This document shows, one piece after another, positions 3,743-64,000 of a DNA stretch of 64,000 nt (the stretch's first letter is position 1; each line of letters opens with the position of its first letter). The notes beneath the pieces were generated by a model. That model saw only the letters and a list, made by a program, of their open reading frames with translations. It had not been told where the DNA came from and made no database searches. This DNA comes from Druceiella hillmani. Its lineage: Eukaryota; Arthropoda; Insecta; Lepidoptera; Hepialidae. The translations under genes were made by a program, and so were the position numbers. Location of the stretch: NCBI GenBank assembly GCA_039881145.1, contig JAYKKI010000004.1, forward strand, positions 47,768,001-47,832,000. The letters are read 5' to 3'.

Positions 3743-4104
3743 TTTCCATAATCGTGTACATTCCCTGTTTATATATTTTTGTAAATAAGTTCATCATCCT
3801 TTCCTTTTTATTTATTTTTGTAAATAAGTTCATCAACATTCCGTGTTAATGTATTTTTGTAAATAAATTCATCATCAATCCGTGTTTATGTATTTTTGTA
3901 AATAAGTTCATCAACATTCCGTGTTCATGTATTTTTGTAAATAAATTCATCATCAATCCGTGTTTATGTATTTTTGTAAATAAGTTCATCATCATTCCGT
4001 GTTCATGTATTTTTGTAAATAAGTTCATCATCATTCCTTGTTCATGTATTTTTGTAAATAAGTTCATCATCATTCCGTATTTATGTATTTTTGTAAATAA
4101 GTAT
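3743..4104. repeat. 39-bp minisatellite, about nine units
   Basis: The word gtaaataa recurs at 3781, 3820, 3859, 3898, 3937, 3976, 4015, 4054 and 4093, a constant spacing of 39 bp. The unit is ttcatcatcattccgtgtt plus catgtatttttgtaaataag with a few substitutions. Because 39 is a multiple of three, one minus-strand frame stays open as a 13-residue repeat; I treat that as a by-product rather than a gene. Confidence 0.95.
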
Positions 4105-4219
4105 CATTGGATATATCACAAACATGAAAATAATCGACCTCATTTCATATTTCAGTAAACATTAAACATTTTTTTAAAAATATTTTTCTACATATTAACT
4201 GAGATCTTCATATGAAGCA

Positions 4220-8555: not shown

Positions 8556-8567
8556 AACAAAATTATT

Positions 8568-9375
8568 CACAATTAAATGAAACTACGTGATGTAGTATTA
8601 TTTCTACTTTCTTTAAGTTCTTTACTACGACCTAGGTTTCGATGTATTACAACATCTTCAAGTGGGCTATTAGCAAAGATTAACTCTTTGGAACATCCAA
8701 CAGCATTTATATGTTTCAAACACAATAGCGGAAGCCGGGTTCGTGTCGGTTTTCCCACTGCTTATGTTAGTGAGTTTATTGTAGGGGAGCGGTGTAGGCT
8801 TTATTATATTTCCGAGAGTTATACGATATACCAGTATTTTACTGAGGGTAATTAATTCAATTGTTGTTATTATATGAGGTTTGTTTGCATTGTACGCAAA
8901 TGTTCCGGTGTACATAATAAAATTAAATGGAAGTTATTCTATAGAATAAAATTAAATGGAAGTTTTTCTATAGAATAACTTCCATTTAATTTTATTACGT
9001 ACACCGAAACATTTGCATTGTACAACCTCATATAATAACAACAATTGAATTTGTTACCCTCACTAAAATACTAGTATATCGTATAACTCTCGGAATATAA
9101 TAAAACCTACACCGCTCCCCTACAATAAACTCACTAACATAAGCAGTGGGAAAACCGACACAAACCCAGCTTCCGCTATTGTGTTTGAAACATATAAATG
9201 CTGTTGGATGTTCCTAAGAGTTAATCTTTTCTAATAGCCTACCTGAAGATGTTGTAATACAACGAAACTTAGGTCGGTAAAGAACTTAAAGAAAGTAGAA
9301 ATAATACTACATCACGTAGTTTTATTTAATTGTGAATAATGAATTTCTACAAAATTAACGCCAAAAGTATTCAAT
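8568..9375 (+). mobile_element. palindromic hammerhead repeat, copy A (long-arm form)
   Basis: An 808-bp element that is almost wholly one inverted repeat: arms of roughly 385 bp meet near 8960-8975 in a short centre around tttttctatagaa. The left arm starts cacaattaaatgaaactacg, and the right arm ends with the family tail (gaatttctacaaaattaacg then ccaaaagtattcaat). The flanks carry a 12-bp target duplication, aacaaaattatt at 8556-8567 and aacaaaatcatt at 9376-9387, one mismatch. Compared with the other copies, each arm has about 270 extra bases (8690-8960 and its mirror) without coding. Both arms carry a hammerhead-like core; the right one (CTGAAGA 9243-9249, GAAA 9264-9267, GTC ending 9275) has a worn helix III, and the left minus-strand one has lost the invariant C3. 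A transcript would fold into a very long dsRNA. Confidence 0.85.
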
Positions 9376-11695: not shown

Positions 11696-12575
11696 TTAGG
11701 TTGCAACTTATAAACCACCGCTTTTTCGACCGATTTCTGGAATGTTATAGAAGCTTCTAGAATTGATATTATAGGGTATATAAAGAGTGCGGCTTTCGAA
11801 CTTCTGTTCAGTTTGCAAATGAGTAGTCGGCGAGTAAGGAATAAATTAAAAATGGAAGTATTTCGAAGTGAATTTGGGGGACTCTTCCTTCATGAATGTC
11901 GTTTAGGGCGAAAAACCAGCAAAGCGTCGCTCAATATATACATAAAATGTAAAAATTTAAAAGTAATAATAAACACAACCAAGCGCTGGTTCCAACGATT
12001 CAAAAAAGGGAATTTTGACCTGTCCGACAAATATCATCTAAAGCGACCTCCTACAATTAATTTAGACAATTTTAAAGCCTTATTGAAGCAGATTCCAGAT
12101 TAAGATTGTATTGTTTGACAGAGCTATTTTCATGACCTTGTACTGCAATGAAAAAACAAATTTCATGCTTTTTCAACACCCTTTCAACTTCAGAGGAGAG
12201 CTAATGTGGAGCTCTGAGTTCTGACTTCTCATCGTACCAACGAGAGGCTAAAGTATCTGGTTACAGGAGATGAAAAGTGGGTGGCTTATGTTAATTTTTA
12301 GCGTAAACGCCAGTGTCTAGGAGCAGAAGAAAAAGGGGTACCTATACCAAAATATAGTATTGGACAAAATAAACTTTTAAGTGCATTGTGGAGTATACAT
12401 GGAGTTATTCATTGGGAACTCTTTCAAGATAACGGTACAATTACAGCTAACATTTAATGTGAACAATTGAGCAAAGTTACTGCTAAACTTCCTTAAATCG
12501 AAGCAAAGTTTATATTTTACATGACATTGCTCGACCCTACGTAGCAAACATTTTTTTTCAGTATTTAGTATGTCC
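11696..12575 (+). mobile_element. mariner (DD34D-type), 3'-truncated
   Basis: The left end ttaggttgcaacttataaac follows a TA dinucleotide at 11694-11695, as expected for a mariner TIR. It leads into a transposase-like coding stretch ending at about 12570. No matching right TIR was found. At 12551-12620 the transposase breaks into a 34-bp tandem duplication (cagtatttag at 12559, cagtatatag at 12593) and unrelated sequence, so the 3' third of the element has been lost or replaced. Confidence 0.7.
11813..12575 (+). pseudogene. mariner transposase, decayed
   Basis: The N-terminal part (11813-12103) reads through a mariner-type helix-turn-helix: HECRLGRKTSKASLNIY, then TTKRWFQRFKKGNFDLSDK, then RPPTINLDNFKALL. 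After several frame breaks the catalytic region resumes at 12252: YLVTGDEKWVAYVN carries the first aspartate. Then come SALWSIHGVIHWELFQDNGT at about 12385-12440 and HDIARPYVAN at about 12520-12550, with the second aspartate. The third aspartate block (SPD..P.DYHLF) is absent. Stops and at least three frameshifts make it nonfunctional. The family usually has about 345 residues; here roughly 250 are traceable. Confidence 0.8.
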
Positions 12576-13280: not shown

Positions 13281-13292
13281 TTTATATTTCTT

Positions 13293-13531
13293 CACAATTA
13301 AATGAAACAACGTGATGTAGTATTATTTCTACTTTCTTTAAGTTCTTTACCACGACCGTAATATTTGCCGTACGTAATCTTTGCTAATAGCCCACCTGTA
13401 GATGATGTAATACAACGAAACCTAGGTCGTGATACAGAACTTAAAGAAAGTAGAAATAATACTACATCACGTAGTTTCATTTAATTGTGAATTATGAATT
13501 TCTACAAAATTAACGCCAAATATATTCAATA
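13293..13531 (+). mobile_element. palindromic hammerhead repeat, copy B
   Basis: A 239-bp copy. The left arm starts cacaattaaatgaaacaacg. The right arm ends catttaattgtgaattatg, then atttctacaaaattaacgcc and aaatatattcaata. Flanks are a perfect 12-bp target duplication, tttatatttctt at 13281-13292 and 13532-13543. The left arm lost its ribozyme segment: cacgacc at 13351-13357 jumps straight to gtaatatttgccgtacg. The right arm keeps the ribozyme region but reads CTGTAGA at 13396-13402, changing the invariant A6, so this copy should be inactive. Confidence 0.85.
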
Positions 13532-13544
13532 TTTATATTTCTTT

Positions 13545-20869: not shown

Positions 20870-21922
20870 ATGGATAAGTTAAGATTTGATTTTGCTGTGA
20901 AGACAGCATCCGAGGGAAAAACCAACATTTTATGCATAACCTCAATTGCCACAACTAGTGGTCAGATCTATGGAATACCACCGGAATATCAACCAGTGAA
21001 TCAACACAAAGCAATGATGAGAACTACAAACTATGCCAAAATAATAAAAAACATTGCAAAGAAGACACCAAACAAGGAAAATTTGGATAACTTTGACAGA
21101 TGATATATCGGATGATATGTGGATGAGGCTCAAAACTTGCAGTTTAATGATGTTTATCTAGAAGAAATAATAGAAACTGAATGTGATCCAGAGTCTAAAT
21201 CTAGTGGCTCAAACGACTCTTTGGAAAAACTGTTAGAAAAATTACTCGAAGAAAAAGAACAAAAATCAGAAACTCAAAATCTAGGCAAGATAGCGAAGAA
21301 TTTTATGATAGAAAAGTTCACAAGTAAAACCACTAATGCCCACCAGCGGATTAATAATTTTAATAAAGAATGTGAACGTTTCAAAGTCAACGAAGACAAA
21401 AAGAAAATAGAGATTTTGAAAAATTTTATGAAGTCGTCAAGTGTACATTGGTACGACTGTATGCTAATAAAATACACAGTAAAATCAGAGTGGAACAAAT
21501 GGGAGAAATGCTTTTGTGGGACATTTGCAAATAAAGATTGGTCATCCATGAGATATGCTCTAGGTTTTAAATACCAAGCAGGTCCGTTACTCGAGTACGC
21601 TCTAAAAAAAGAGAAATTACTACTGGAAGTTAGGAAGAACATTGATACTGGGACTCTTATTGATCTCATAGCATTCGGCTTGCCTAATTTTGTTGCCGAT
21701 AAAATCGACAGAGAAACTTTGCAACAAACAGAAGATTTGTATAATGAAATAGGAAAACTAGAACACCTCGTTGGGAAAACTAAGTATGAAAAAAAAGGAT
21801 TTACAAATTCTGACCTTAAACAAAAAAAAATTGAAGAAAGAAAACCATGCCAAATTTGTGCCAATGAAAAAAAAGGGAAACGCTATCACCCAGAGGAGAA
21901 TTGCTGGTTTAAAGACTATTAA
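20870..21922 (+). pseudogene. gag-like region with a zinc knuckle
   Basis: One frame runs from ATG at 20870 to the stop at 21922, about 350 codons interrupted by two TGA codons (21101 and 21113). The longer second part is acidic then basic, as in gag proteins. It contains a matrix/capsid-like stretch (FMKSSSVHWYDCMLIKYTV, then WNKWEKCFCGTFANKDW) and ends in a C-x2-C-x9-H-x4-C knuckle, CQICANEKKGKRYHPEENCW, at about 21850-21907. That spaced knuckle is the form I associate with insect Ty3/gypsy gag. The product would bind element RNA and build particles. The stops block it. Confidence 0.8.
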
Positions 21923-24895
21923 TGGTGAGAAAAAAACAAAAGGTATGGTTACATTAAAAATTAAAATATATAATGTAGAACAAAACATGGATATTTTTGT
22001 CATAGACAAAGAAAATTTTAAATATGATTTCTTAATTGGTTTAGATTGTATAAGAAAATTCAAGCTTATTCAAAATGAAGACTTAAAAATAACACAAAAA
22101 GGTCAGAAAGAAGAGCTTAATATAAAAAACGATACAAATGTCCACATTCCTGAAGTACTAGGAGACAAAACTGAACCAAGATTAGGAAGCCCTAGAATGG
22201 AGAAGGTGAAGAACGAAATAAACTTCAATGAACATATTAAAACTGATAAATTTGAAAAGATCGTTAATCATCTAGATAAACAACAACAATTAGAGATTGA
22301 CGAGCTCATAGACAAATTTAAGACTGTCTTTGCTAAGGATAAATATGATGTCGGCACTGTACGAGATTATGAAGCTCATATTGACCTGATGGTGGATAAA
22401 TACTGCTGCAAACGTCCATACAGATGTATAGCTGGAGATAGAAGAGAGATAGAAAAACAAATATCAAAATTATTAGAGAAAAATTTGATTGAGGAATCAT
22501 ATAACCCGTTTGCTGCCCCAGTAACTCTGGCTTATTAAAAGGAAGATGAACGAAAAACAAGACTTTGTATAGATTTCAGGTAATTGAACAAGATAATCGT
22601 CCCACAATCACAGCCATTTTCATTGATTGAAGATCTAATGACAAAAACAGTAAACTGTAAGTATTTCTCAACGTTTGATATTAATTCAGCGTTTTGGTCA
22701 ATTCCATTGAAAGTACAGGATAGGTACAAAACGGCCTTTGTTACTCAAGAAGGTCATTTTCAATGGACATGCCTTACTATTTGGACTAAAAACTGCTCCA
22801 GCCATTTTTCAAAGGATAATGACTAACATCATAAGAAAGAATAAGCTCTCTGATTTTGCAGTAAGTTCCAAAAACCTTTGAAGAACATATATCACGGTTA
22901 CTGGAGGCAATACAAACGGAAGGGTTTAGACTAAAACTTACCAAGTGCATATTTGCAAGTAGTTATGCCAAGTATTTAGGCCACATAATAGAAAACAATT
23001 TAGCGAGGCCTCTAAAAGATTATTTGGTAGCAGTAAAAGACTTTCCAATACCAGAAACAAGGAAAAATGTACGACAATTCCTAGGAAAAGTAAATTTTCA
23101 TCACAAGTTTGTGCCACACAGTGCTATCATCTTGGTCCCGTTACACAATTTGTTAAAGAAAGATGTGAAATTCGTGTGAACTGAAGAATGTCAAAAATCA
23201 TTTGATAAAATGAAAACACTACTGTGCTCTGTACCAATTCTGAAAATTTATGATCCAGAATTACCAATAAACATTTATACAGACGCAAGTGCAAAAGGAA
23301 CAGGCGCAGTGTTAAAACAGCCTGATAAAAATGGAGACAATAAACCAGTTGCTTATTTTTCAAAAAAATTAACAGATACACAAAAAAAGAAGAATATATG
23401 GCAATATACCTAGAATGTTTAGCAATAAAAGAATCTATAAAATACTGGCAGCATTTGCTTATGGAAAAGGAGTTTACGGTGTATTCTGATCATAAACCAC
23501 TAGAAAACTTAAATATTAAAGCAAGAACTGATGAGGACCTCGGAGACCTAACATATTATTTATCCCAATACAATTTCAAAATTAAATATAATCCTGGAAA
23601 AACAAATATAGAGGCAGATTGTTTGAGCAGAAATTCAGTCCTAGATCCAAGTGAAAATAATGATGATGATGCTTTGAAAGTGGTAAATTTAATAACTATA
23701 GAAGAAATAAAAATAGATCAAAATTCAAATCAAGAAATACAAAAAGATAAAAATGGACTTATACTAAGAGATGAAATATACTACAAGAAAAATAAAGGAA
23801 GAAACAAAATTATACTATCAGAAGGATTAAGCAAAACATTGATAAAAAAGTACACATTACTTATTGCCACCTAGGAACAACACAAATGATAAATAAATTA
23901 ACACCATACTATTTAGCGAAGAATATCATAGCAAAAATTAAACAGACTTGCGAAGAATGTGAAATATGCATTAAAAATAAAACAAGGAGAAAGCCGAAAT
24001 ATGGATTATTGTCACATTTAGGACCAGCAAGACACCCATTTGAAATTGTATCATTTGATACAATTGGTGGTTTTGGGGGATCTCGGTCAACAAAAAAGTA
24101 CCTGCATCTTTTAGTTGATAATTTCACTAGGTATGCTTATATCTTGACGTCAAAAAACCAAAGCTCTAACGATTTTATTAAACTTATTCAACAAGTGACA
24201 CAAAGTCATAAAATTGATATGATATTAACGGACCAATATCCTGGTATAAACTCTAAAGAATTTAAGGGATTTCTGAAAGATAACAGTATAAGAATAATTT
24301 TTACTGCGGTGGACACTCCTTTTTCAAATGGGCTTAACGAAAGTTTGAACCAAACTTTAGTTAATAAAATAGATGCCAAATAAATGAAAGCGAAAGAAAG
24401 ATTGCATGGAGAACAATAGTACAGAATTGTGTAAAGAAATATAATGAAACAGAACACACTGTTACCAAATTTGCACCAAAATACCTATTGGAAGGAGAAA
24501 ATGTAAATATTCTTCCATCAGAACTAAAAACAAGATGTTCAAATGAAGATCTGAGAAGAGATAGAAAATTAGCATATATAAATGTAATTAAATCTCATGA
24601 GTATAATAAGAAGAGATATGACCTATCAAGGAGGGAATATGACTTTAAAAAAGGAGATAGAGTCTATGTGGAAAACGGTAATCGACTAAATAGGAAGAAA
24701 ACAGATGAACTGAGAATTGGACCCTACGAGATCTTGAAAAAAATTTCTAATACAATTTATGAAGTAGATGCCGGTAACAAGAAGGAAGAATCAAATTTGT
24801 TTCATGTTACAAAACTTACTCCATTGTCGATTGAGAAAAGAACAATTACGTGCAATCACACTTGTAATTGTTCTTCTCTCGGCGGGGATATGTAA
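21923..24895 (+). pseudogene. pol: protease remnant, RT, RNase H, integrase; multiply broken
   Basis: Only the C-terminal protease half survives (FLIGLDCIRKFKL near 22027-22065); the DTG/DSG active site is missing. RT begins about 22335 (VRDYEAHIDL). LCIDFR at 22562 and STFDINSAFW near 22670 are visible, with stops at 22536 and 22579 and a frameshift near 22775. The YxDD box is deleted at about 22858-22872. RNase H shows YTDAS (23277), LECLAI (23408) and YSDHKPL (23483), split by a frameshift near 23392. Integrase has the HHCC finger (23845-23970, frameshifted at its start) and all three DD35E residues: SFDTIG at 24051, LTDQYPG with D at 24231, NGLNESL with E at 24339. It ends with the GPY/F-type block RIGPYEIL near 24713. 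Frameshift and stop at about 24380. Confidence 0.92.
24881..24890 (+). promoter_or_regulatory. polypurine tract before the right LTR
   Basis: ggcggggata immediately precedes the right LTR start tgtaaag. The purine-rich part (24881-24888, one C) is in the position expected for plus-strand priming. Confidence 0.55.
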
Positions 24896-33308: not shown

Positions 33309-33495
33309 TTTCGTTGTATTACAACATCTTTAGGTGGGCTATTAGCAAAGATAAACCTATATCAAAGATAGATCCTAAAACCTAGGTCGTGATAAAGAAC
33401 TTAAACAAAGTAGAAATAATACTACAGCACGTATATTCATTTAATTGTGAATTCTATTGTAATTCCTACAAAATTAACGCCAAATATATTCAATA
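33309..33495 (+). mobile_element. palindromic hammerhead repeat, copy C, 5'-truncated
   Basis: Starts inside the left arm at tttcgttgtattacaacatc and runs through the centre into a shortened right arm and the normal tail (ctacaaaattaacgccaaat, then atattcaata). It is flanked by a perfect 12-bp target duplication, ttcaacactcga, at 33297-33308 and 33496-33507. The target duplication proves that the truncation happened during insertion and not later. The right-arm ribozyme core is deleted; the left-arm minus-strand core reads CTAAAGA, losing G5. Confidence 0.88.
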
Positions 33496-33507
33496 TTCAA
33501 CACTCGA

Positions 33508-44238: not shown

Positions 44239-44416
44239 CTGTTACTGGGATATTAGCAAAGATCTTTGCTAATATCCCACCTGAAGATCTTGTAATACAA
44301 CGAAACCTAGGTCGTGATAAAGAAATTAAAGAAAGTAGAAATAATACGACATCACGTAGTTTCATTTAATTGTGAATAATGAATTTCTACAAAATTAACG
44401 CCAAATATATTCAATA
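44239..44416 (+). mobile_element. palindromic hammerhead repeat, copy D, 5'-truncated
   Basis: The left arm is almost absent. The element starts near its centre, which here is a 32-bp perfect palindrome (44247-44278, centre gatc). It continues through the right arm to the standard tail. Target duplication tttactgttta at 44228-44238 and 44417-44427. Truncation with an intact duplication again implies incomplete copying from the 3' end. Confidence 0.88.
44277..44317 (+). ncRNA. hammerhead ribozyme motif, copy D
   Basis: CTGAAGA 44281-44287, GAAA 44302-44305, CC-TA-GG and TC with the predicted cut after C44313. Helix I pairs CAC with GTG. Helix II has one C-C mismatch at its base (tcttgtaatacaac), so activity would be reduced. 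Confidence 0.55.
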
Positions 44417-44429
44417 TTTACTGTTTAGT

Positions 44430-53101: not shown

Positions 53102-54421
53102 CAGGTTGTCAAGTGGCAGATTTCAAAGTTTGAACAAACGTAGTTTCTGAACGCAACACATAAGAGGGGCGCGGGGGATGTCGTCAGAAGCGCAAGCGGT
53201 GCGGCTGTTTTAGTAGCCATGGAACAATGGAGCGGAGAGCACCGCGCTTTTGCCGTCGAGGCGTACATTTCGAGTAGATTTTCGCTGTCTGTAGCACGCC
53301 GTCGATTTAATAATCGTTACAGTATTCGTCGATTACGTGATGGACCATCGATCAACCTCATTCAGTCATGGGTAGCAAGGTTCAGAGCTACAGGACCAAC
53401 ATTAAATAGGCCCAGGCCAAGACCTATACCATTGGTAGCTACGGATGAAAATGTCGAGCGTGTTATGGTTTCTGTCGTTGAAAATCCCCGTTTATCACTG
53501 CGTACACGTTCATAGATATTGGGAATCCCGAAATCAACTTTACAGGTAATAATGCGAAAAAAGCTCAAATTCCATCCATATAAAATTCAAATTGTTCAAG
53601 ATTTACACGATTCTGACTTTAAATTAAGAAAAACTTACGCGGAGGTGATGTTGTTGAGATTTCGTACTGCTACCCGGATGGGCAACATGTTCTTTAGTGA
53701 CGAAGCTCACGTTCACATTGGAGGATATGTGAATAAGCAGAACTTTCGTTACTGGGATGTCCACAACCCAAGACAAATGCATCAAGAGCCTTTATATAAA
53801 CCTAAAGTAACAGTCTGGTGTGCCATGTCTGCATCTGCAATCATAGAGTCTTATTTCTTTGAAAATCAACGTGGCCAAACTGTAACTGTGAATTCGGAGA
53901 GATATGCCAAGATGTTAAATTACTTTTTCGGAGTAGAACTATAGAACAGTCCATCCTTCAACCAAAACAGATGGTTCCAGCAGGACGGGGCTATAGCTCA
54001 CACTTCTAATGTGTTCATGAATGCAGTGCGCCAGTTATTTCCAGAAAAAAACATATCCCGAAACGGTACCGTATCGTGGCCACCTAGGTCACCCGATTTA
54101 AGCCCATGTGACTTTTTCTTATGGGGATACTTAAAATCCGTTGTTTACAAAACAAATCCGAGCACTGTGACACAACTTAAAGAAAATATTCGAGCCGAAG
54201 TCAGTAGGATACCCCAGTCGCTCTGCAAACGCGTTTTTGAAAACATGCGTGCTAGACTCGAAGAGTGTGTCAGACTCGATGGCCGCCATTTGGAAAACGT
54301 GGTTTTTAAAAAATGAAATCCGCATTTGTTTTTATAAAGTTAAAATAAACCTACTTTGTATTAGAGGGGTAGTTTTTTTTTACAATTTTTCAAACATTGA
54401 AATCTTATATGCGTGCCCCTG
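53102..54421 (+). mobile_element. mariner-type transposon, DD41D, 1.32 kb, with TIRs
   Basis: Bounded by TA at 53100-53101 and 54422-54423. The left end is CAGG, 13 bases, then gatttcaaagtttgaa. The right end read in reverse is CAGG, 13 bases, then gatttcaatgtttgaa. The equal 13-base spacing supports these as true TIRs although the middle has diverged. The element contains one long transposase frame and nothing else. TA target and terminal layout fit Tc1/mariner. Confidence 0.85.
53219..54316 (+). pseudogene. DD41D mariner transposase, two internal stop codons only
   Basis: A single frame runs 365 codons from ATG at 53219 to TGA at 54316 with just two TAG codons (53513 and 53942) and no frameshift. 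The N-terminal helix-turn-helix region includes SVARRRFNNRYSIRRLRDGP and LIQSWVARFRATG. The catalytic core shows FFSDEAHVHIGGYVNKQNF (first D), WFQQDGAIAHTSN (second D) and WPPRSPDLSPCDFFLWGYLK. Counting from the second D to the D of CDFFLWG leaves 41 residues, hence DD41D, the spacing I associate with the rosa/visitor lineage rather than classic DD34D mariner. Near-intactness suggests recent activity. Both lesions are single-base nonsense changes. Confidence 0.9.
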
Positions 54422-54530
54422 TAGGTTTGTGATAGCGGAATAAAAAGTAATATATTCCGGCTTTATAAGTAAAATTCCCAAAAATATTATCATGATGTGT
54501 TCCTCCTCACGTGATAACACATGAATATAA

Positions 54531-54764
54531 CAATTAAATGAAACTACGTGATGTAGTATTATTTCTACTTTCTTTAATTTCTTTATTACGACCTAGGTTT
54601 CGTTGTATTACAACATCTTCAGGTGGGCTATTATCTGTTGTAATACAACGATACTTAGGTCGTGGTAAATAACTTAAAGAAAGTAGAAATAATACCACAT
54701 CACGTAGTTTCATTTAATGGTTAATAATGAATTTCTACAAAATTAACGCCAAATATATTCAATA
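54531..54764 (+). mobile_element. palindromic hammerhead repeat, copy E
   Basis: Left arm starts caattaaatgaaactacgtg, lacking the first two bases. The right arm ends with the standard tail to aaatatattcaata. Target duplication catgaatataa at 54520-54530 and cataaatataa at 54765-54775, one mismatch. The centre lost the gcaaagat/atctttgc junction. The right-arm ribozyme is worn (gatactt replaces gaaacct), whereas the left-arm one on the minus strand is intact. Confidence 0.88.
54586..54627 (-). ncRNA. hammerhead ribozyme motif, copy E left arm
   Basis: On the minus strand: CTGAAGA (54622-54616), then T, the perfect GTTGT-AAT-ACAAC helix II, GAAA (54601-54598), CC-TA-GG and TC with the cut after the base opposite 54590. 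Helix I is weak, CA pairing with the GT of GTAA only. Confidence 0.6.
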
Positions 54765-54812
54765 CATAAATATAAGTTATTGCCGCAGTCGGCATCGAAA
54801 TTATCCCATATT

Positions 54813-55113
54813 CACAATTAAATGAAACTACGTGACGTAGTATTATTTCTACTTTCTTTAAGTTCTTTACCACGACCTAGGTTTCGTTGTATTACAATAT
54901 ATTCAGGTGGGATATTACCAAAGATAAGCTAATGGGCCATTGGACCTGAAGATATTGTAGATTTGCTAATAGCGCACCTGAAGATGTTGTAATAGAACGA
55001 AACCTAGGTCGTGGTAAAGAACTTAAAGAAAGTAGAAATAATACTACATCACGTGGTTTCATTTAGTTGTGAATAATGAATTTCTACAAAATTAACGCCA
55101 AATATATTCAATA
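54813..55113 (+). mobile_element. palindromic hammerhead repeat, copy F
   Basis: Left arm cacaattaaatgaaactacg to about 54925, an enlarged centre (54926-54962) that holds an extra partial ribozyme word (ggacctgaagatattgtag), then the right arm and tail. Target duplication tatcccatatt at 54802-54812 and tatcccatatc at 55112-55122, overlapping the final ta of the tail. It lies only 48 bp from copy E but has its own duplication, so the two are separate insertions. Confidence 0.88.
54973..55014 (+). ncRNA. hammerhead ribozyme motif, copy F right arm
   Basis: CTGAAGA 54978-54984, GAAA 54999-55002, CC-TA-GG and TC with the predicted cut after C55010, helix I CAC/GTG. Helix II carries a C-to-G change (aatagaac) that breaks one pair. 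The left-arm counterpart on the minus strand reads CTGAATA and has lost G8. Confidence 0.6.
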
Positions 55114-55439
55114 TCCCATATCTCAAAAACTAGACAACATGTATTATTTAAACCAATTTCGTTGACCGTTCATTTTAAGCTCTACTAGCTCAATTTTGTT
55201 CGAATTTTACACACTCTGTTGAAAAGTTAGGGGGTGGGGAGGTGCACTCTTTCAGACTTTATAAGCTTGCATATCACTGAAAATTCACTTAAATAAGAAA
55301 AATTATTTTGGAACCTCTACATAATTGTTAAGACTTGTCTAACGATACCCCACACGCCTATGTGCACTGGATTTTTTTTCATCACTCAATTACATGCAAG
55401 AAATTCTTCATTATATTGTAAAAAGTTCACACTACTTCA

Positions 55440-60881: not shown

Positions 60882-61141
60882 CCATATGTGTGTGTACACA
60901 TATGTTTGTGTGCTTTCTTTGTAATAATACATTCACTGTCTAGTGTTAAAAAATATCACAACGTCTTCACGGTTTAATATAAAAGTTTATTATTTCAATG
61001 ATATAAAAATATATAACTTAAGTCTTTATACGTTCGTTACTTTTTTTAAAAATAAAAATAAAAATTCAATTTAATTTGAGTAATTTAAAATTAAATTAAA
61101 TTTGCGCATTTAAAAATAAAAGCTTCTTGTATTTGTCTTAA

Positions 61142-61275
61142 CTTCAGGTGGGCTATTACCAAAGATAGCCCACCTGAAGATGTTGTAATACAACGAAACC
61201 TAGGTCGTGGTAAAGAACTTAAAAAAAGTAGAAAAAATACTACATCACGTAGTTTCATTTAATTATGTATTATGA
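61142..61275 (+). mobile_element. palindromic hammerhead repeat, copy G, truncated at both ends
   Basis: Begins inside the left arm at cttcaggtgggctattacca, crosses the centre and continues in a well-preserved right arm to agtttcatttaatt. Its 3' tail has drifted into attatgtattatgatatag and lacks the ttaacgccaaatatattcaat end. No target duplication is recognisable. Confidence 0.8.
61169..61210 (+). ncRNA. type I hammerhead ribozyme, best-preserved copy (G)
   Basis: All expected parts are present in order. Helix I 5' strand CCAC (61170-61173), invariant CTGAAGA (61174-61180), one extra T, helix II GTTGT-AAT-ACAAC (61182-61194), GAAA (61195-61198), helix III CC-TA-GG (61199-61204), T61205, C61206, cut, then GTGG (61207-61210) pairing with CCAC. 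The extra residue after A9 is known to be tolerated in natural hammerheads. Helix III is too short to close well alone, but ACCTAGGT is self-complementary, so two transcripts could share an intermolecular helix III, as in dimeric hammerheads of retroelements. The motif sits in the arm of a retro-inserted repeat, so it probably processes that repeat's RNA. Confidence 0.75.
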
Positions 61276-63404
61276 TATAGTTATTTTTAGTTATGTGATT
61301 TGGATAAGAATTCAGCTGTGTTTCATTCGCAGTTAATAGTTTAAATGCATTTTTATATCGAACAATTGCACCAATTTCTGTCAACTGTCTACATTGCGTT
61401 CAAAAGCCCCTAAGAGGATACTTTTTACTTTTTTCTTCAAAACTTTTATGAAAAAAAAATGAATAAAAACCAATGTTGCTTTTAAAGTTATAACAATTTT
61501 AATAAATTATTTAAAAGTTGAAATTATTTTTAAAAATTAAAATATTTTCGCTTTTTTTCCTATCTTTTTAATGAAATAAATTAAATGAGAATGCAATATT
61601 TTTTACTAACGAAATTCAAACACTTTTTCCACGTCATGTTATAAACCTATACTTTGTTTTTGTCTATCTTCCAATACATATTATTAAAACGAAAAAAATG
61701 AAAAAACAATAATAAACCATAATGATAAAATTGTTTAATCAAATAACACTGTCATGTCATAAATATATACATCATGTCATATAAGTATGTATGAGAAAAC
61801 ATTTTATCAAATTAGGACTGGAGAAAAATTAGAAATATGATAAATTGGAGTATATTAATAAGGCGATGTAGATAGTCTAAATATTAAAACCATTACATCA
61901 AAATCTGCTTCTATAGATAGGTAATTACTAAAACATTGAATGAAAGTCCGAATCTAACAGAAACATTTTCAATTATGTTTCAGACTCATTGAACTGATGA
62001 AAATCGGTTTTTCGCTGTAAAGCTGAGTAACATTGCGGCTAAAGCATCTAAAAGTTTTAGCTATCTGACCTTTTGTTTTCACTAAACTGCCTTTGTTTCT
62101 GGTAGTTTTGACTGTTGACTCGAACTACGTAGATACTTTGAGAGGATAACCATTATCTATCTAAATATTTAACTCGTGATAAATTCGAAAATTGGTTTGA
62201 AATTAGCCACATAATCCATAGTTAGATATTCTTCAACACAAATGCTGTAGTCCGTTGATAGAATACATAGAAGTGGTCGTCAGATGCTATATGAACATTA
62301 CGTTACGGATATTATGATTTCTCTACAGATGGTTCAGGACTGTAGATTGTCAAGATCTTTATTTGAATGAAATTGAGATCAACTTTGGTGTGAAATCGCG
62401 ATTTTTTCAATTTAAAATTTCGCGAACCTATAGGGAAAATAACGAAGAGTTCTTTCTGTATAATGAATGAAGAATGTACATAAATAGCAAAGTATTTATT
62501 TCTTAAAAATTCTTCTGCATTCAACATCTATGTGAAAATCTTAAATTTAGGCTAAATTCACATAAATTTTAATTTAACTCTTTGAAGTATAGTTCGTAAT
62601 TAGTTATAGTTCATAATAAGTTTATAGTTTTATAAGTCAGTTATAAATATTATTTATTTTAGTTTTTTGTGTACAAGGTTTTGTTTTTGCAAAATAGCAA
62701 AAAGAAGACCTTATCATTTCGTTACGTCTACATGTCTTAACATTACATTTTCTTCAATTTAAGGCCGATTATGGTGCAATTTTACAGGAAGATATAGTAT
62801 AATTAAGAAAACACAAAGAGAACGGTTTTAAGTTTCTCTTTTAAATCCTTTTCATACATTAAACTTGAGGATGATTTTTTTTCTCATAGACCCTACATAA
62901 TGGGATGTCATTTAAGTGGTATCTAAAAAAAAGAGTGAAAATACGTAGCAATATTTTAGGATCTAACGTCCTTCGTGAGATATGTAGTGAGTCTCTAAAA
63001 TGTTTTGCAATTTATTTCTATAATTATATAAACTATTTAATAAGTATTTCAAAGCAAAATTATTACGTCCATTTGCATCGTAAGAGTTATAGGTAAACCA
63101 TGTTTTTTGCACGTGTCTTCTTTTGAAGGCTTAGAACAGGTTTACAAAAGAAGTTCACTCATGGTGAGCAGCTCGCAAAGGGTTAATGCTTGTAAGTGGG
63201 TCGTATTGTGCCATACATTCGTATAATGTTTGTATCTGCTAAAAGCCATTTTAAGCGTTTCTAGGTTAACTGTAACGTATACTTTTGACAGCTCTTGATC
63301 GGAGATATTGCATTGTCAATTCGAGTGGCGCGCGGCTTATGTGCACTGAGAATACTTGCTGAGAATACTTTGCAGTAAATACGTATTTGATTATATTTGA
63401 GCGA
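61276..63404. other. long AT-rich spacer, nothing recognised
   Basis: Poly-A and AT-rich runs. Short frames (62312-62527, 62905-63096) without domains. A short duplication gagaatacttgc/gagaatactttgc occurs near 63349-63372, just before the satellite. Confidence 0.45.
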
Positions 63405-64000
63405 GAATAGTTTAAAATAAACTTTGTAACTAAGTATGAACACAATTGACACTACGAGAGTACACATTTTTTTATAAACATTTAATAATAGTTAAAAATA
63501 AACTTTCTAAGTATGAACACAATTGACACTACGAGAGTGCGTACACATTTAGGCGCATATAAACATTTAATAATAGTTAAAAATAAACTTTCTAAGTATG
63601 AACACAATTGACACTACGAGAGTGCGTACACATTTAGGCGCATATAAATATTTAATAATAGTTAAAAATAAACTTTCTAAGTATGAACACAATTGACACT
63701 ACGAGAGTACGTATACATTTAGGCGCATATAAACATTTAATAATAGTTAAAAATAAACATTCTAAGTATGCACACAATTGACACTACGAGAGTACGTATA
63801 CATTTAGGGGCATATAAACATTTAATAATAGTTAAAAATAAACATTCTAAGTATGAACACAATTGACACTACGAGAGTACACATTTTTTTATAAACATTT
63901 AATAATAGTTAAAAATAAACTTTCTAAGTATGAACACAATTGACACTACGAGAGTGCGTACACATTTAGGCGCATATAAACATTTAATAATAGTTAAAAA
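63405..64000. repeat. 85-bp satellite array with 77-bp variant units, runs off the window
   Basis: cacaattgacactacgagag recurs at 63441, 63518, 63603, 63688, 63773, 63858 and 63935. The steps are 77, 85, 85, 85, 85 and 77 bp. The two 77-bp units share the variant tacacatttttttataaaca, while 85-bp units read tacacatttaggcgcatata after gagagtgcg/gagagtacg. The first variant recurs 417 bp later, suggesting a five-unit higher-order period. The array is unfinished at base 64000. Confidence 0.97.

What the first reader, a model, noticed from the sequence alone, without database searches (positions are those of the whole stretch)
61142..61275. A complete hammerhead ribozyme sits in a mobile palindromic repeat
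Copy G carries every hammerhead element in order: CCAC, CUGAAGA, U, GUUGU-AAU-ACAAC, GAAA, CC-UA-GG, UC, GUGG. Invariant core residues, three helices and a permitted UC cleavage site agree at once, which chance does not easily give. Hammerheads are known in Penelope-like elements, retrozymes and some satellites, usually with a minimal helix III as here. Seen: the sequence and pairing. Inferred: that it cleaves and serves retroelement RNA processing.
Basis: partly seen in the sequence, partly recalled or inferred. Interest (0 to 1): 0.88.

Follow-up and report, generated by a model that had tools for sequence, protein, structure and literature searches.

The report
Hammerhead-like ribozyme in Penelope-like repeat
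A small mobile repeat, scattered through what is probably an animal genome, carries what looks like a minimal self-cutting RNA (hammerhead ribozyme) shaped to work as a pair; this kind is already known from Penelope-like jumping elements, so it is a new example rather than a new thing.

Summary
The motif is real and in the stated place. At 61170-61210(+) the hammerhead (HHR) core letters, a 4-bp helix I, a 5-bp helix II and a self-complementary helix III (ACCUAGGU) occur in order, with C61206 as predicted cut site. Chance is unlikely: 0 of 76 matches elsewhere to the core skeleton have helix I or II of 4 bp or more, and two cores fold together as the known double hammerhead. Against it: 14.6 bits with Rfam Hammerhead_1 (gathering 34) and an extra U before helix II. 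It lies in one of 14 arms (7 units) of a repeat inserted as head-to-head pairs. Five of 7 units share flanking words of 8-12 nt, and a tail of about 40 nt is on one arm only. That fits Penelope-like terminal repeats, but no Penelope protein was recognised and the host genome could not be reached. Only copy G keeps every element, and its own inverted fragment pairs with the core, so this copy is probably silent in read-through RNA. None of 14 arms starts at the cut site; 7 of 12 short arms start 19-24 nt upstream of the core, as if uncleaved RNA had been inserted.

The parts
61170..61210 (+). hammerhead-like motif of copy G: helix I CCAC/GUGG, core CUGAAGA, extra U 61181, helix II GUUGU-AAU-ACAAC, GAAA, helix III ACCUAGGU, predicted cut after C61206
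61142..61166 (-). short inverted stub of the same repeat (25 nt), complementary to the 5' part of copy G including CUGAAG
61163..61275 (+). copy G arm, without the 3' tail (start by nhmmer; its overlap with the stub is a matter of a few nt)
8561..9373 (+). unit 1: minus arm 8561-8680 and plus arm 9224-9373 (with tail) joined by further inverted sequence of about 270 nt per side; shared flanking word AACAAAAT
13288..13533 (+). unit 2: minus arm starting at GGTC, plus arm with tail; shared flanking word TTTATATTTCTT
33310..33496 (+). unit 3: truncated minus arm, plus arm with tail; shared flanking word TTCAACACTCGA
44252..44417 (+). unit 4: short inverted stub, plus arm with tail; shared flanking word TACTGTTTA (9 nt; ATTTACTGTTTA when the left flank is read further by eye)
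54530..54765 (+). unit 5: minus arm and plus arm with tail; weak shared flanking word (7 exact nt)
54812..55115 (+). unit 6: minus arm and plus arm with tail; shared flanking word TATCCCATAT

Best explanation
The motif is a minimal type I hammerhead in the terminal repeat of a Penelope-like retroelement, present here as short head-to-head copies, mostly 5'-truncated, with no coding part recognised. Shown: the motif, the family, the paired inverted arms, shared flanking words in 5 of 7 units and the one-sided tail. Inferred: the source element's RNA carried direct (tandem) terminal repeats, in which two cores pair through the 8-nt palindrome ACCUAGGU into a double hammerhead and cut after GUC; and insertion was target-primed, with a template switch that gave the inverted arm. 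The copies in this window are decayed passengers, and copy G, although intact in letters, is locked by its own inverted fragment in read-through RNA.
For: Motif intact in copy G and in the family consensus. Skeleton matches elsewhere lack the helices, 0 of 76. The dimer MFE is exactly the double hammerhead, -23.0 kcal/mol, against a monomer MFE of -7.2 each; with core letters kept and the other letters shuffled, at least half of the pairs form in 1 of 500 and all pairs in 0 of 500; with all letters shuffled, at least half form in 0 of 500. Shared flanking words of 12, 12, 10, 9 and 8 nt in 5 of 7 units (p 0.0005 to 0.02 against random flanks). Tail of about 40 nt on 6 of 7 plus arms and on none of the 4 minus arms that reach the 3' end. 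Literature: minimal type I HHRs are reported in Penelope-like elements and Terminons, and axolotl HHRs cleave much better as dimers (PMC7229834, passages); Aedes repeat HHRs have palindromic stem III proposed to act as dimers (PMC3088659, passages).
Against: Rfam Hammerhead_1 14.6 bits, gathering 34. Extra U between A9 and helix II. The monomer prefers another fold (-7.2 against -3.8 for the HHR). The dimer energy alone is not unusual: 97 and 90 of 500 shuffles are as low or lower. The 41 nt vary more than the next 55 nt of the repeat (16 of 326 against 11 of 440 sites in 8 of 12 arms), so no sign of constraint in the copies. No arm of 14 begins at the cut site. No Penelope reverse transcriptase or GIY-YIG context was recognised in the window by motif patterns, a weak test. 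No direct tandem pair was noticed in the window, and inverted pairs would sequester the core. Perreault et al. tested an Aedes candidate that did not cleave under their conditions (PMC3088659, passage).
Confidence: 0.7

Rival explanations
1. The motif is a relic or look-alike: the repeat descends from an element with a hammerhead, or resembles one by chance, but this version with the extra U does not cleave.
For: Sub-threshold Rfam score, extra U, more stable competing monomer fold, no excess conservation, 5' ends not at the cut site.
Against: All elements plus a palindromic helix III coincide in the consensus; 0 of 76 skeleton matches have the helices; the dimer folds as a double hammerhead.
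Confidence: 0.17
2. A metazoan retrozyme: a small non-autonomous element with a type I HHR, transcribed as circles and moved by another element's enzyme.
For: Small, no coding part recognised, type I HHR, flanking words longer than 4 nt, low GC, as described for animal retrozymes (PMC7229834, passages and sections 14 and 17; PMC4918200 section 10).
Against: Animal retrozymes are described as direct tandem repeats of about 150-450 bp; here all 7 units are inverted pairs or an arm with an inverted stub, and no direct tandem pair was noticed. Helix I and II are minimal, as in the variants reported from Penelope-like elements, though mussel retrozymes also lack most loop-contact nucleotides.
Confidence: 0.09
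3. A fold-back or miniature inverted-repeat DNA transposon that happens to contain the motif.
For: Inverted arms flanked by shared words.
Against: The two ends differ: the tail is on one end only; the left arm ends at different points in units 3, 4 and 7; the flanking words vary from 8 to 12 nt.
Confidence: 0.04

Closest known systems
Minimal type I hammerheads of Penelope-like elements (Cervera and De la Pena 2014; paper not held, known here through citations in PMC7229834 and PMC4918200)
   Same: Small type I HHR in the repeat of a Penelope-like element; minimal helices; inverted terminal repeats and one-sided tail (the last two recalled from the Penelope literature, not read here)
   Different: Extra U at the base of helix II (whether other Penelope hammerheads have it was not seen); no coding copy seen; source species not known
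Aedes aegypti repeat-type hammerheads (Perreault et al. 2011, PMC3088659, sections 6 and 8 and passages read)
   Same: Animal interspersed repeat, palindromic stem/loop III, proposed dimer
   Different: Their stem III gives 10 bp in the dimer; here 8 bp
Newt and axolotl hammerheads (PMC7229834, passages read)
   Same: Very short helix III, act better as dimers
   Different: Loop 1-loop 2 contacts and tandem repeats there; neither seen here
Metazoan retrozymes (PMC7229834, abstract, sections 14 and 17, passages read)
   Same: Small non-coding repeats with type I HHR and target duplications longer than 4 nt
   Different: Direct tandem repeats there, inverted pairs here

Membership tests
Hammerhead ribozyme, type I | Core CUGANGA ... 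GAAA ... UH before the cut | tested here: met
   61174-61180, 61195-61198, 61205-61206
Hammerhead ribozyme, type I | Helix II directly next to A9 (pair 10.1-11.1) | tested here: not met
   Extra U61181 before G61182-C61194; the register without a bulge gives no hit
Hammerhead ribozyme, type I | Helices I, II, III around the core | tested here: met
   4, 5 and 3 pairs in copy G; the family consensus is the same
Hammerhead ribozyme, type I | Rfam Hammerhead_1 at gathering score | tested here: not met
   14.6 of 34 bits for copy G, 12.8 for the copy at 54975-55013; no hit at gathering in the window
Hammerhead ribozyme, type I | Loop-loop contact between helices I and II | not tested
   none evident by eye beyond the 4-bp helix I
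Hammerhead ribozyme, type I | Self-cleavage | not testable with these tools
   needs RNA
Double (dimeric) hammerhead | Self-complementary helix III letting two cores pair | tested here: met
   ACCUAGGU; dimer MFE is the double hammerhead
Penelope-like element | Terminal repeats in inverted or direct order with a one-sided 3' tail (recalled) | tested here: met
Penelope-like element | Target duplications of variable length (recalled) | tested here: met
   8-12 nt in 5 of 7 units; unit 54.5 kb weak (7 nt, p 0.08), unit 61.1 kb none
Penelope-like element | Reverse transcriptase with GIY-YIG endonuclease | tested here: inconclusive
Metazoan retrozyme | Direct tandem repeats of about 150-450 bp each with an HHR | tested here: not met
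   The 7 units are inverted pairs or arm plus inverted stub

The most novel reading that the evidence does not exclude
In this family the ribozyme is not used to mature the RNA that gets inserted: the inserted RNAs start at a fixed site 19-24 nt before the core and keep the ribozyme uncut. The frequent formation of inverted pairs then silences it, so the hammerhead (a variant with an extra U after A9) would act only in the tandem-repeat form, as a dimer-dependent switch between active source and dead copy.
Probability: 0.13. Interest if true: 0.5.

Novelty: new member of a known kind. Interest (0 to 1): 0.3.

Why it matters
It adds one more probable dimer-type hammerhead to Penelope-like elements. 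It also gives a small set (14 arms in 7 insertions) where the question 'what does the ribozyme do in the Penelope life cycle?' can be put to the sequence: the 5' ends of the copies do not fall at the cut site. If that holds genome-wide, it argues against ribozyme cleavage as the step that makes the inserted RNA.

Tried and rejected
Rejected: a canonical register without a bulge (no hit); chance origin of the whole motif; terminal-inverted-repeat DNA transposon (asymmetric ends); the sub-threshold Rfam matches other than the hammerhead (18 of 28 are microRNA models, mostly lying on the hairpin; SNORA15, 26.2 bits on the other strand, gathering 47).

Led nowhere: exact and near-exact searches of viral contigs for the family motif (0 matches); the wider pattern found 76 loci, none with the helices; a PDB search with one transposase-like reading frame (0 matches). 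Translating the inner arms of unit 1 gave no recognisable protein by eye. Motif patterns in six frames gave 8 scattered matches, none to the GIY, GSxLSP or WxR-VDD patterns; this scan also recognised no reverse transcriptase in the gypsy-like stretch, so it is weak.

Full report
What is there. The 41 nt at 61170-61210 hold CCAC, CUGAAGA, U, GUUGU-AAU-ACAAC, GAAA, CCUAGG, UC and GUGG. A descriptor for type I hammerheads (helix I >=4, helix II >=4, helix III >=3 pairs) finds no site in either strand of the window in the standard register and one site, this one, when one extra nucleotide is allowed after CUGANGA. In 200 first-order Markov sequences of 64 kb (one strand each) the mean was 0.005 hits without and 0 with the extra nucleotide.

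A control with real DNA. The skeleton CTGAAGATG-N7..17-CGAAAC-N4-GTCG was sought in the prokaryote genome collection (70 matches) and in viral contigs (6 matches). Of these 76, none has helix I of 4 or more pairs and none has helix II of 4 or more pairs; the 12 that were printed passed only for their helix III letters. Some of these matches are relatives of each other, so 76 is not a number of independent draws, and their base composition is not that of the window.

Rfam. At gathering scores the window has no match to any of 4227 families. With relaxed thresholds on 61166-61220 the only match (after clan competition) is Hammerhead_1 at 61170-61210, 14.6 bits, gathering 34, E 0.25 for that 55-nt search; the printed alignment passes over helix II. 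A second copy, 54975-55013, gives 12.8 bits. On 61100-61300, 28 weak matches were listed, 18 of them microRNA models; SNORA15 on the other strand had 26.2 bits (gathering 47, E 0.0044), and the listed hammerhead match was HH9 at 12.9 bits, gathering 52. I do not take it as refutation, because the hammerheads of Penelope-like elements are described as atypical minimal variants (PMC7229834, passages), but it lowers confidence.

The dimer. ACCUAGGU (61198-61205) is self-complementary. Folding two 41-nt cores together without constraints gives exactly the double hammerhead as minimum, -23.0 kcal/mol; a single core prefers another fold (-7.2, against -3.8 for the hammerhead) (a 48-nt stretch likewise folds otherwise). 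In 500 shuffles that keep the core letters, at least half of the double-hammerhead pairs form in 1, and all pairs in 0; in 500 full shuffles at least half form in 0. The energy alone is not unusual (90 and 97 of 500 as low or lower). Better cleavage of short-helix-III hammerheads as dimers is reported for axolotl (PMC7229834, passages) and proposed for Aedes aegypti repeats with palindromic stem III, where the candidate tested did not cleave (PMC3088659, passages).

The extra U. U61181 lies between A9 and helix II in 9 of the 9 arms that hold both the CUGAAGA region and helix II (3 of 12 rows, truncated or joined there, were left out), so it belongs to the family and is no accident of copy G. 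Perreault et al. describe an insertion after A6 with low activity, one in GAAA that could point outward, and others near C3 (PMC3088659, section 8; passages); I saw none after A9 in what I read. Its effect is unknown.

The family. nhmmer finds 12 copies in the window; with two further stubs at 44.2 and 61.1 kb they form 14 arms in 7 units. In the units the arms stand head to head. The longest unit (8561-9373) has further inverted sequence of about 270 nt per side between the arms. Shared flanking words that look like target duplications are TTTATATTTCTT, TTCAACACTCGA, TATCCCATAT, TACTGTTTA (ATTTACTGTTTA if read further by eye) and AACAAAAT in 5 units (p 0.0005, 0.0005, 0.0015, 0.005 and 0.02 against random flanks); unit 54.5 kb has 7 nt (p 0.08) and unit 61.1 kb none (5 nt, p 0.57). 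Unit ends had been set by eye. Cross-unit comparisons of flanks gave 4-7 nt, with one value of 9 (42 comparisons). A tail of about 40 nt follows 6 of 7 plus arms and none of the 4 minus arms that reach the 3' end. Inverted terminal repeats with a one-sided tail and uneven target duplications are, from recall, marks of Penelope-like elements; no Penelope paper could be opened to check this.

State of the copies. Of 12 arms, 5 keep all core letters, and copy G alone keeps core and all pairs (the alignment of the arm at 9.2 kb is uncertain at a 2-nt gap). Over 8 arms (4 of 12 dropped as truncated), the 41-nt motif differs from consensus at 16 of 326 sites, the next 55 nt at 11 of 440, the 14 core positions at 3 of 112; without copy G it is 16 of 285 and 8 of 385. 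So there is no sign of selection on the motif in these copies, as expected for dead copies.

Copy G in its place. Folding 61142-61222 gives a 16-bp hairpin that takes in CCAC and CUGAAG (-34.8 kcal/mol, z -6.8); the probability of helix I then rounds to 0.0, and stays below 0.01 when the RNA starts at 61155 or 61163. Copy G is therefore a poor place to expect cleavage in read-through RNA; the tandem-repeat form of a source element would be the right one, but none is in hand.

5' ends. Walking upstream from the motif, 7 of the 12 arms outside the long unit begin 19-24 nt before C3 of the core, the others at -13, -9, +4, +22 and +29; 0 of 14 begin at the predicted cleavage product end, the nearest being 4 nt off. 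The walk allows mismatches, so each value is good to a few nt, and the two arms of one unit may not be independent. This suggests a fixed RNA 5' end before the ribozyme and insertion of uncleaved RNA. It does not exclude cleavage of other transcripts.

Setting. The window is AT-rich (31% GC) with simple repeats, a gypsy-like stretch with an integrase core (rve, PF00665), a Mos1-type HTH_48 frame and a transposase-like frame with DUF4817. It looks like an animal genome, probably an arthropod; that is inference.

Verdict.

Noticed in passing
63406-64000: Tandem array of an 85-bp unit (7.1 copies, 90% matches) running to the window end; no hammerhead descriptor hit in it.
   Followed up: partly
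8562-9340: Large imperfect palindrome (arms 92% alike) whose inner part of about 270 nt per side has no other blastn match in the window; it may be the sequence upstream of the repeat in the source element.
   Followed up: partly
53144-54316: Transposase-like frame broken by two stops; first piece matches DUF4817 (and HTH_32 below its cut-off), the other two no Pfam family; two of the palindromic units lie just downstream.
   Followed up: partly
21116-24895: Gypsy-like element remnant: integrase core and H2C2 zinc finger, protease below cut-off.
   Followed up: partly
11714-12103: Frame with the Mos1-type HTH_48 domain.
   Followed up: partly
3759-4107: Tandem array of a 39-bp unit, 8.9 copies.
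   Followed up: no
whole window: The tail-bearing arm is on the + strand in all 6 units that have a tail; possibly coincidence.
   Followed up: no
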